Below are positions 39,692 through 64,000 of a stretch of DNA of 64,000 bases, piece by piece. The notes under the pieces are model-generated. The model worked only from the letters and a program-made list of their open reading frames with translations, had not been told where the DNA came from and searched no databases. The DNA is from an uncultured Mediterraneibacter sp. (lineage in GTDB: Bacteria; Bacillota; Clostridia; Lachnospirales; Lachnospiraceae). The translations under genes and the position numbers were made by a program. Location: contig CALWLJ010000015.1 in NCBI GenBank assembly GCA_944381495.1, forward strand, positions 26,916 to 90,915, read 5' to 3'. The first letter of the stretch is position 1. Each line of letters begins with the position of its first letter.

Positions 39692-41185
<1,494 letters not shown>

Positions 41186-62300: not shown

Positions 62301-63224
62301 ATGGCAATCACAGCGGGAATGGTAAAAGAATTAAGAGAAATGACAGGCGCAGGAATGATGGACTGCAAGAAAGCTCTCAACGAGACAAACGGAGATATGG
62401 ATGCAGCCGTTGAGTACCTGAGAAAGAACGGACAGGCTAAGGCTGAGAAGAAAGCCGGTAGAATTGCAGCAGAGGGTATCGTTAAGACTGTTGTCAGAGA
62501 TGACAAAGTTGCAGCTATCGTAGAGGTTAACTCTGAGACAGACTTCGTTGCAAAGAACGATGAGTTCCAGGGATTTGTAGAGGCTGTTGTAAATCAGGTT
62601 GCTGACAACGATCCGGCTGATATGGATGCTTTCATGGCTGAGCCGTGGGCAGCAGACACTTCCAAGACTGTAAAGGATGCTCTCGTAGAGAAGATCGCAG
62701 TTATCGGAGAGAACCTGAACATCAGAAGATTTGAAAGAGTAGTAGCTGAGAACGGATGCGTTGTTTCCTACATTCACGGCGGCGGACGTATCGGTGTTCT
62801 TGTAGTGGCTGATACAGATGTTGTGAACGACGAGATCAAGACATGCCTGAAGAACGTAGCTATGCAGGTAGCAGCTATGTCTCCGAAGTATGTATCCCGT
62901 GACGAAGTTTCTCAGGAGTTCCTTGATCATGAGAAAGAGATCCTTCTCGCTCAGGCTAAGAAAGAGAATCCGGAGAAGCCGGACAACATCATCGAGAAGA
63001 TGATCATCGGACGTCTCAACAAAGAGATGAAAGAGTACTGCCTGCTTGATCAGGTATATGTACAGGACAGCGACCTGACAGTTGCAAAATATGTAGATAA
63101 GGTTGCAAAAGAGAATAATGCAAATGTAACAGTTAAGAAGTTCGTACGCTTCGAGACAGGCGAAGGAATCGAGAAGAAAGAAGAGAACTTTGCTGAGGAA
63201 GTTGCAAAACAGATGAATATGTAA
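62301..63224 (+). CDS. tsf: Elongation factor Ts
   Basis: 307 residues from ATG 62301 behind GGAGG. The N-terminal UBA-like module (MVKELREMTGAGMMDCKKALNETNG) and the core (VEVNSETDFVAKNDEF) are conserved. Recycles EF-Tu-GDP. Normally pyrH and frr follow in Firmicutes; here a terminator and an unusual non-coding region come next. Confidence 0.99.
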   Translation: MAITAGMVKELREMTGAGMMDCKKALNETNGDMDAAVEYLRKNGQAKAEKKAGRIAAEGIVKTVVRDDKVAAIVEVNSETDFVAKNDEFQGFVEAVVNQVADNDPADMDAFMAEPWAADTSKTVKDALVEKIAVIGENLNIRRFERVVAENGCVVSYIHGGGRIGVLVVADTDVVNDEIKTCLKNVAMQVAAMSPKYVSRDEVSQEFLDHEKEILLAQAKKENPEKPDNIIEKMIIGRLNKEMKEYCLLDQVYVQDSDLTVAKYVDKVAKENNANVTVKKFVRFETGEGIEKKEENFAEEVAKQMNM

Positions 63225-63247
63225 TTTCATAGACCGTAAGGTGCTTA

Positions 63248-63293
63248 AAGCCCTTGAAAATCCCGAAAAACGGGCGTTTTCAAGGGCTTTTTT
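63248..63293 (+). terminator. tsf terminator
   Basis: AAAGCCCTTGAAAA...TTTTCAAGGGCTTT with an inner CCCG/CGGG stem and TTTTTT. Its T-run is part of a 15-bp sequence repeated at 63622-63636. Confidence 0.92.
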
Positions 63294-63299
63294 GCGTTC
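63285..63299 (+). repeat. 15-bp direct repeat, left copy (att-like)
   Basis: GGCTTTTTTGCGTTC, identical to 63622-63636. The left copy is the end of the tsf terminator and the following bases. The arrangement resembles left and right attachment sites of an inserted segment of about 337 bases. Confidence 0.6.
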
Positions 63300-63317
63300 C
63301 GGAGCGAATCCGTAAAG

Positions 63318-63331
63318 TATCATAAATTATC
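63318..63331 (+). repeat. 14-bp direct repeat, left copy
   Basis: TATCATAAATTATC; the partner TATCATAAGTTATC at 63517-63530 differs at one base. The pair encloses the TTGGGGGA cluster. Confidence 0.7.
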
Positions 63332-63340
63332 GTATTTTAC

Positions 63341-63514
63341 GGGTAAATTTGGGGGATTTTTGGGGGAAGAGTTGGGGGAAAGCTATCCCCCAAATGCCAT
63401 GTGAAACTTCGCCTCTTTCTTCTGAAATGAACAGGAGAAGTTTGCGTGCCGTTTCTTTTTGGGGGATAACGCTATCCCCCAAATTTGAACGTGAGTTAAT
63501 GTATCTTCCCCCAA
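63341..63514. repeat. Cluster of seven TTGGGGGA octamers with a G-quadruplex motif
   Basis: Plus-strand copies begin at 63349, 63360, 63372 and 63459; reverse copies TCCCCCAA begin at 63386, 63475 and 63507. Neighbouring opposite copies form hairpins (63458-63468 with 63473-63483, perfect 11 bp; 63372-63379 with 63386-63393). GGG at 63341 and the first three G5 tracts are separated by 7, 6 and 7 bases, meeting the usual G-quadruplex rule. No convincing gene covers the region. Confidence 0.75.
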
Positions 63515-63516
63515 AT

Positions 63517-63530
63517 TATCATAAGTTATC
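63517..63530 (+). repeat. 14-bp direct repeat, right copy
   Basis: TATCATAAGTTATC, 13 of 14 identical to 63318-63331, directly abutting the last octamer. Confidence 0.7.
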
Positions 63531-63584
63531 AGCAAAAGAAACAGGCAAACTCTGTTTATGAATAAGTGAATATGGATAGATTAT

Positions 63585-63632
63585 GCAAAAGGCCGTTTGT
63601 TCTTTATAGTAGAGAGCAGGCGGCTTTTTTGC
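63585..63632 (+). terminator. Hairpin with T-run before the last gene
   Basis: GCAAAAGGCCG and CGGCTTTTTTGC enclose a 25-base loop, with the T-run inside the right arm. It contains most of the right 15-bp repeat. Confidence 0.55.
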
Positions 63633-63636
63633 GTTC
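63622..63636 (+). repeat. 15-bp direct repeat, right copy (att-like)
   Basis: GGCTTTTTTGCGTTC, identical to 63285-63299 at the tsf terminator. Confidence 0.6.
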
Positions 63637-63684
63637 TATAAATATATGGCTTTTGTCAGATTTAAAGAAAGAGAGGAAATGTCA

Positions 63685-64000
63685 ATGAAGAATGATGTCA
63701 ACAAGATCAAAGATGTAAAAAGCACTGTAAATCTGATCTCCGGGGCCTATACATTGCCCCTGATCAACAAACTATTTTCCAACAGTCAGAGGATTGAGGA
63801 TATGGATGATATTTATTTCTCCATGACTGCATTGATGGATACAGACAGAATCAGCGAGGTGTTCCATATGATAAGAGGATTGTTTGGAATTGCCGGTATG
63901 GAATACCCGCAGGAGATCGCACAGTTGGAAAAATCGGAAGAACTGCAGGAATCTTTTGTGTCGGAATTTATTTTTGATTTTTATGATGTGATTGAGGATA
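63685..64000 (+). CDS. Unrecognised protein, 5' part (runs off the window)
   Basis: At least 105 codons, open at the right edge, so only the N-terminus is visible: MKNDVNKIKDVKSTVNLIS, then LPLINKLFSNSQRIEDMDDIY, and an acidic end (QESFVSEFIFDFYDVIED). GAGAGG lies eight bases before ATG 63685; an ATG two codons earlier is too close to it. It appears soluble and helical with no recognised motif. It lies beyond the repeat cluster where pyrH would normally be, so it probably belongs to accessory DNA. Confidence 0.6.
   Translation, partial: MKNDVNKIKDVKSTVNLISGAYTLPLINKLFSNSQRIEDMDDIYFSMTALMDTDRISEVFHMIRGLFGIAGMEYPQEIAQLEKSEELQESFVSEFIFDFYDVIED

What the first reader, a model, noticed from the sequence alone, without database searches (positions are those of the whole stretch)
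63285..63636. Att-like cassette of about 337 bp inserted at the tsf terminator
The 15-mer GGCTTTTTTGCGTTC occurs at the end of the tsf terminator and again, identical, 337 bases on. Inside this pair is another direct repeat (14 bp, one mismatch) and an array of octamers in both orientations, with no convincing gene. Nested direct repeats around dense short repeats are what the recombination end of an integrative element looks like (core sites plus arm-type sites). Either this is one end of an element extending past 64000, or a minimal remnant that could be mobilised in trans. Part of the 15-mer is terminator-like (GGC plus T6), so some similarity could arise by chance.
Basis: partly seen in the sequence, partly recalled or inferred. 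Interest (0 to 1): 0.75.

Follow-up and report, generated by a model that had tools for sequence, protein, structure and literature searches.

The report
Left end of a tsf-inserted element
The short repeat-rich stretch behind the translation-factor gene tsf is not a separate 337-bp cassette but most likely the left end of a larger mobile element that slots into the end of tsf in many gut bacteria and carries a row of probable binding sites for its integrase.

Summary
The repeats are real: the 15-mer occurs twice (63285, 63622), and all six exact TTTGGGGGA sites of the window lie between the copies. The cassette reading fails. In contigs from three other genera a 399-bp block spanning the tsf terminator and both 15-mers is 95-96% identical to the window, while tsf itself is only 68-71% identical, so the mobile boundary lies at the tsf 3' end. 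A genome-collection scan for the paired site gave 62 stretches; in 33 it lies just downstream of tsf. One relative with both ends (15.0 kb, another Lachnospiraceae genome) has tsf-3'-end-like direct repeats, TTTGGGGGA arrays at both ends, relaxase, Tn916-type Xis, and a tyrosine integrase whose stop codon abuts the right array; it sits behind another element, and no tsf was found in the 40 kb read there. The window thus shows attL: tsf 3'-end core, terminator, seven arm-type sites, second terminator, first cargo ORF. The contig stops at 64000. No right end, cognate integrase or second array was found in this genome, so the copy may be a remnant or unassembled. Four congeners with one 15-mer are best read as deletions between the twin terminators. 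Known kind (IME/ICE); tsf as target was not found in the papers searched.

The parts
62301..63224 (+). tsf (elongation factor Ts), host target gene; its last codons lie in the core
63201..63218 (+). attL core at the tsf 3' end, GTTGCAAAACAGATGAAT
   Evidence: Similar direct repeats bound the element of G447 (TTCGCAAA[G/A]CAGATGAAT) and lie beside the right junction in L041, G448, G446 and G475; exact exchange point inferred
63247..63297 (+). Terminator 1, carried by the element left end; 14-bp perfect stem, T6; its end is 15-mer copy 1
   Evidence: hairpins of the same type lie between tsf and the array in the tsf-linked left ends printed (seen by eye)
63314..63331 (+). TATCATAAATTATC-type repeat, copy 1 (accessory site?)
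   Evidence: similar repeats precede the array in relatives with other arm motifs
63348..63394 (+). Proximal arm-type cluster, order +++-: 63348+, 63359+, 63372+ (TTGGGGGA), 63386-
   Evidence: order +++- kept in 29 of 33 tsf-linked left ends
63458..63515 (+). Distal arm-type cluster, order +--: 63458+, 63475-, 63507-
   Evidence: complete in 7 of 33 tsf-linked left ends (L251, L253, L257, L267, L271, L299, L306)
63513..63530 (+). TATCATAAGTTATC-type repeat, copy 2
63592..63636 (+). Terminator 2 (GCCGTTTGTTCT..AGAGCAGGCGGC, T6), ending in 15-mer copy 2; similar hairpin after guaA in G002 and G061
   Evidence: guaA identity
63646..64000 (+). First cargo ORF, open at window and contig end; likely start 63679 or 63685; no Pfam match here, no Pfam or NCBIfam match for the G034 homologue
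   Evidence: its start travels with the left end to other genera (L251, L299, L306)

Best explanation
63201-64000 is the left junction (attL) of an integrative element of the IME/ICE kind, inserted by a tyrosine integrase into the 3' end of tsf. The element brings its own last tsf codons, stop and terminator, so tsf stays intact and insulated. Behind them lie seven arm-type sites (consensus TTTGGGGGA) to which the integrase's N-terminal domain would bind to build the integration and excision complex with the core at the tsf 3' end; a matching array would lie at the far end beside int. A second terminator then precedes the cargo. The two terminators share the 15-mer, and loss of the DNA between them by recombination or slippage gives the single-15-mer variants, which lose all arm sites of this end and should be immobile. 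Shown by sequence: the block's spread across genera, the conserved left-end layout behind tsf, and a relative with core repeats, arrays at both ends, xis and int. Inferred: binding of the motif by integrase, the exact crossover, the deletion mechanism. Unknown: whether this genome still holds the rest of the element.
For: Block 63238-63636 is 95.5, 96.2 and 95.2% identical in L251 (Acetatifactor), L299 (Merdisoma) and L306 (Scybalocola), on the same contigs as tsf genes that are 68.2, 69.7 and 70.6% identical. In the genus 9 of the 11 genomes with the pattern (58 searched) have it beside tsf. G447: core repeats 15,023 bp apart; all TTTGGGGG-type sites between them lie in the two end arrays; int with Phage_integrase and SAM_3 domains, Tn916-Xis, Relaxase, NikA-like. 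The integrase with its stop beside a TTTGGGGGA array and tsf-like cores (L316) is found, 100% identical, in the same assembly as L251 (G448, a bin; other contig), which has the window-type left end. Relatives of it at 74-79% occur in G446, G447, G456 and G475, four more genomes with TTTGGGGGA left ends. G007 has another tsf insert with both junctions on one contig and its own motif, TTTGGTA, at both. Phage contigs L189, L138 and L101 carry such sites on both sides of a tRNA or tRNA-3'-end-like stretch next to an integrase gene (ARAGORN confirms a tRNA only in L138).
Against: In this genome no second array, no integrase at E<=1e-50 to the cognate one and no match to the cargo following the left end in G034 were found (91% complete, 39 contigs). 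No tsf was found in the 40 kb read around the G447 element, nor in the stretches read of G456 and G475, so its insertion at tsf rests on the core sequence and the left-end type. In one search, given 31 left-end genomes (29 of the 33 tsf-linked plus those of L249 and L250) and six others, 12 of 37 had any match at E<=1e-50 and only six (five if G271 and G448 are one assembly) an integrase of 74% or more. 29 of 62 stretches with the paired motif are not seen beside tsf. G456's integrase is not followed by an array at its stop; an array and tsf-like cores lie about 1.2 kb further on. In viral contigs the paired motif lies within 500 bp of an integrase ORF in 17 of 104 loci (6.1 expected at random positions): enriched, but most are not.
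Confidence: 0.87

Rival explanations
1. The 337-bp segment is itself a minimal mobile cassette with 15-mer core sites, inserted at the tsf terminator and mobilised in trans by an integrase.
For: Exact 15-bp direct repeats around dense arm-type sites. Four genomes have one copy of the 15-mer (in G036 and G005 with a base changed) and no insert.
Against: The region was found at no other place in this genome, and in the 61 genomes its large matches lie only beside tsf. In other genera the terminator to its left moves with it while tsf does not. The hairpin to its right is joined to TATAA.ATATATGG in the guaA locus of G002 as well. The G447 element uses a tsf-3'-end-like core. The no-insert genome G007 shares its left flank with filled G025 (by eye), and no-insert G023 shares both flanks with filled G002 (98.3 and 97.6%).
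Confidence: 0.05
2. It is a dead remnant: only the left end and a few hundred bases of a former element remain in this genome (a version of the best explanation, not exclusive of it).
For: No second array, cognate integrase or G034-type cargo was found here. Damaged copies exist in the genus: G073 breaks off after the second site, G065 has a deletion from the distal array into the cargo ORF.
Against: The contig ends 364 bp after the second 15-mer, the assembly is about 91% complete, the seven sites are intact, and G034 with the same left end continues into genes that include a conjugation-type TraG P-loop protein.
Confidence: 0.5
3. The array is an operator or regulatory binding region for the first cargo gene rather than integrase arm sites.
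For: It lies upstream of a cargo ORF and contains paired inverted sites.
Against: The same motif lies at both ends of the G447 element, at the far end directly behind int, and directly behind int in G446, G475 and G448, and around tRNA-like stretches next to int in three phage contigs; G007, with a different motif, shows that one at both ends too. No binding data.
Confidence: 0.07

Closest known systems
IMEs and ICEs with site-specific tyrosine integrases inserted in 3' ends of housekeeping genes (rplL, rpsI, rpmE, rpmG, lysS, guaA), as surveyed in streptococci (PMC4701971, PMC5357655) and reviewed (PMC5704250); passages read in each
   Same: Integrase gene at one end facing the attachment site, short direct repeat (12-54 bp reported for the streptococcal ICEs) made of the target gene's 3' end, target gene restored, relaxase.
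   Different: Target is tsf, hosts are Lachnospiraceae; 'tsf' and 'elongation factor' do not occur in the held main texts of these three papers.
Tn916 family Int/Xis
   Same: The xis of the G447 element matches Tn916-Xis above Pfam's cut-off; the related integrase P0001 matches the Tn916 integrase DNA-binding domain only weakly, below the cut-off.
   Different: Apparent single-gene target with a core at the tsf 3' end; Tn916 has low integration specificity (passage of PMC4701971).
Arm-binding tyrosine recombinases (classification in PMC8138268; passages read, one of them from the abstract)
   Same: SAM-like core-binding plus catalytic domain with extra N-terminal region, repeated accessory sites beside the core.
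   Different: Not placed in that paper's subgroups by any test here; the N-terminal domain itself was not shown.

Membership tests
Site-specific tyrosine-integrase element (IME/ICE), family level | Direct repeat of the target gene's 3' end at both boundaries | tested here: met
   G447: TTCGCAAA[G/A]CAGATGAAT at both ends, 15,023 bp apart; tsf itself not within the 40 kb read
Site-specific tyrosine-integrase element (IME/ICE), family level | Tyrosine integrase gene at one end | tested here: met
   G447 int 74% identical to the L316 int, right array begins within 10 nt of its stop codon
Site-specific tyrosine-integrase element (IME/ICE), family level | Mobilisation or conjugation genes | tested here: met
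   Relaxase and NikA-like in G447; TraG P-loop protein in G034 after the left end
Site-specific tyrosine-integrase element (IME/ICE), family level | Excision and transfer take place | not testable with these tools
   No reads or experiments
Site-specific tyrosine-integrase element (IME/ICE), this copy in G000 | Left junction with core, terminator, arm-type array | tested here: met
Site-specific tyrosine-integrase element (IME/ICE), this copy in G000 | Right junction and cognate integrase present | tested here: inconclusive
   None found, but the assembly is 91% complete and the contig ends at 64000
Independent 337-bp mobile cassette | Mobile boundary at the 15-mers | tested here: not met
   The high-identity block starts just behind the tsf 3' end, not at the 15-mer
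Arm-binding tyrosine recombinase | N-terminal domain binds the repeated motif | not testable with these tools
   Only motif placement at both ends, and a weak Tn916 arm-domain match for P0001

The most novel reading that the evidence does not exclude
The twin terminators are a built-in locking device: recurrent precise loss of the DNA between the two 15-mers removes every left arm site, so the element can no longer excise, while the tsf terminator is kept. At least two lineages (G007 from a G025-like copy, G023 from a G002-like copy) would have done this independently.
Probability: 0.1. Interest if true: 0.6.

Novelty: new member of a known kind. Interest (0 to 1): 0.4.

Why it matters
It points to the 3' end of tsf as a shared integration hotspot in gut Lachnospiraceae, apparently used by related integrases with different arm motifs (TTTGGGGGA, TTTGGTA), with tandem accretion of elements. 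Motif and integrase can be paired from sequence, which makes arm-site specificity testable, and the left-end signature (terminator plus +++- array about 126 bp behind tsf) can be used to annotate these elements and their remnants.

Tried and rejected
Cassette bounded by 15-mers: rejected. Array as both arms of one element with the middle deleted: rejected because L271 and other left ends carry the whole array on one side of cargo. P0001 (L250) as the cognate integrase: dropped, since the sites behind it read TTGAGTA; the L316 type fits. G073 and G065 as full elements: G073 breaks off after the second site, G065 has a deletion. The region downstream of tsf in G029 as a guide to the right junction: it matched only scattered places. 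P0001 in viral contigs gave two distant hits. The 80 kb read behind tsf of G018, G028 and G001 held no integrase matching P0001 at E<=1e-10 nor my integrase profile at E<=1e-6. Paper search for the bare motif: 275 papers, the 15 listed are unrelated by title. Searches for tsf as integration site: searches gave no paper; one search gave 4, unrelated by title and start of abstract. A first count of arrays beside integrases in viral contigs (16 of 93, repeated) had lost 11 loci, L089-L099, to a naming slip; one search counts all 104.

Full report
Observation. The 15-mer pair and the array are real. Both copies are the T-tract ends of terminator-like hairpins. The array comprises seven sites, order +++- then +--, consensus TTTGGGGGA; all six exact copies of the window lie here. 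The contig ends at the window's end, so nothing to the right can be read directly.

Relatives in the genus. The genus is Mediterraneibacter-like: contigs with the same lengths and match positions as genus genomes carry Mediterraneibacter or Lachnoclostridium names. Of 61 genomes searched with the 421-bp region 13 match, the own included. Whole or nearly whole inserts are in G000, G002, G034 and G080; G024 runs to its contig end; G003 diverges near the right end; G025 has an internal deletion; G073 breaks off and G065 has a deletion into the cargo ORF. A single copy of the 15-mer (one base changed in G036 and G005) joined directly to TATAAATATATGG occurs in G023, G007, G036 and G005. At first sight these are empty sites; but their right flank is the ORF region that travels with the left end, clearly in G007, for about 150-200 bp in G023, with a further gap in G036, and for only 37 bp in G005. 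G007's left flank is of the G025 type (by eye) and G023's flanks are of the G002 type (98.3 and 97.6%), and both partners are filled. Loss of the insert is therefore the simpler reading, at least twice.

Where the mobile boundary lies. A scan of genome contigs for TTTGGGGGAWWTTTGGGGGA gave 62 stretches; 33 lie downstream of tsf on the same strand, 28 of them 125-137 nt behind the end of the tsf match, and 29 of the 33 have the order +++-. In L251, L299 and L306, from other genera, tsf is 68-71% identical to the window's (in L306 over 812 of 890 nt) but the 399-bp block 63238-63636, terminator, both 15-mers and array included, is 95-96% identical. A block bounded by the 15-mers would not drag the left terminator along.

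An element with both ends. G447 contig C12 holds, reading towards int: core CTTCGCAAAGCAGATGAATCAGTAA, terminator, left array +++-+, cargo, a 60-aa Tn916-Xis-like protein, integrase, right array +----+ starting within 10 nt of the int stop, then core GTTCGCAAAACAGATGAATGCATAA; the cores are 15,023 bp apart. Cargo includes Relaxase, NikA-like, an ABC transporter with FtsX-type permease, a two-component system and a TnpV protein. In the 40 kb read, the only other sites are a pair near 39970, next to what looks like another partial right end. The element sits in tandem behind another integrase, P0001; no tsf was found in these 40 kb. The integrase of L316 is also found, 100% identical, in G448, the assembly of L251 with the window-type left end, on another contig; relatives at 74-79% occur in G456, G446, G475 and G447. 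Right arrays follow int directly in G446, G447, G475 and G448; in G456 the array is about 1.2 kb further on.

Other tsf elements. G007 has a roughly 33-kb insert between tsf and the older left-end remnant, with TTTGGTA sites at both ends and an integrase 46% identical to P0001 next to the right junction. G028, G018, G001 and G076 have TTGGGTA-type arrays behind tsf. Arm motif varies, while a TATC[A/G]TAAATTATC-like repeat next to the array recurs.

Viral contigs. Of 104 stretches with the paired motif, 17 have it within 500 bp of an integrase ORF found by my profile, 6.1 expected at random positions. In L189, L138 and L101 the sites flank a tRNA or tRNA-3'-end-like stretch beside int; ARAGORN calls a tRNA only in L138, the other two are judged by eye.

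This genome. No second array, no cognate integrase at E<=1e-50 and no G034-type cargo (the tool warns that this query had no positive control) were found. Whether the copy in the window is intact or a remnant is open.

Literature. Tyrosine-integrase elements in 3' ends of housekeeping genes are well known (passages of PMC4701971, PMC5357655, PMC5704250); tsf is not named in these main texts, nor in PMC8138268, and searches found no report of it. The library holds only open-licence papers, so a report elsewhere is possible.

Noticed in passing
L041 and L217 (G007:C125, about 18.4-51.6 kb): A second type of tsf-inserted element of about 33 kb with TTTGGTA sites at both ends, placed in front of the older left-end remnant: accretion at tsf.
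   Followed up: partly
L209, L210, L212, L205: Behind tsf of G028, G001, G018 and G076 lie arrays of a third motif, TTGGGTA, with similar surroundings; no integrase was found in the 80 kb read for G018, G028 and G001.
   Followed up: partly
L039:10100-10200; L228:1-200: A hairpin like terminator 2 follows guaA (Pfam GMP_synt_C) in G002 and G061; in G002 it continues into TATAATATATGG and a small ORF, as if related elements also use guaA.
   Followed up: partly
L247, L261, L269, L276, L279, L280, L288, L303: In eight Pseudomonas contigs the paired TTTGGGGGA motif lies at or near one end of an integrase ORF, so the motif may be shared by distant integrases.
   Followed up: no
L314, L318 (behind int): Three successive tsf-3'-end-like segments of about 32 bp in a row, like ghosts of repeated insertion and loss.
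   Followed up: no
L196, L197 (G016:C26, G027:C56): TTTGGGGGA pairs in the genus not shown to be beside tsf (G027's on another contig; no tsf match in G016).
   Followed up: no
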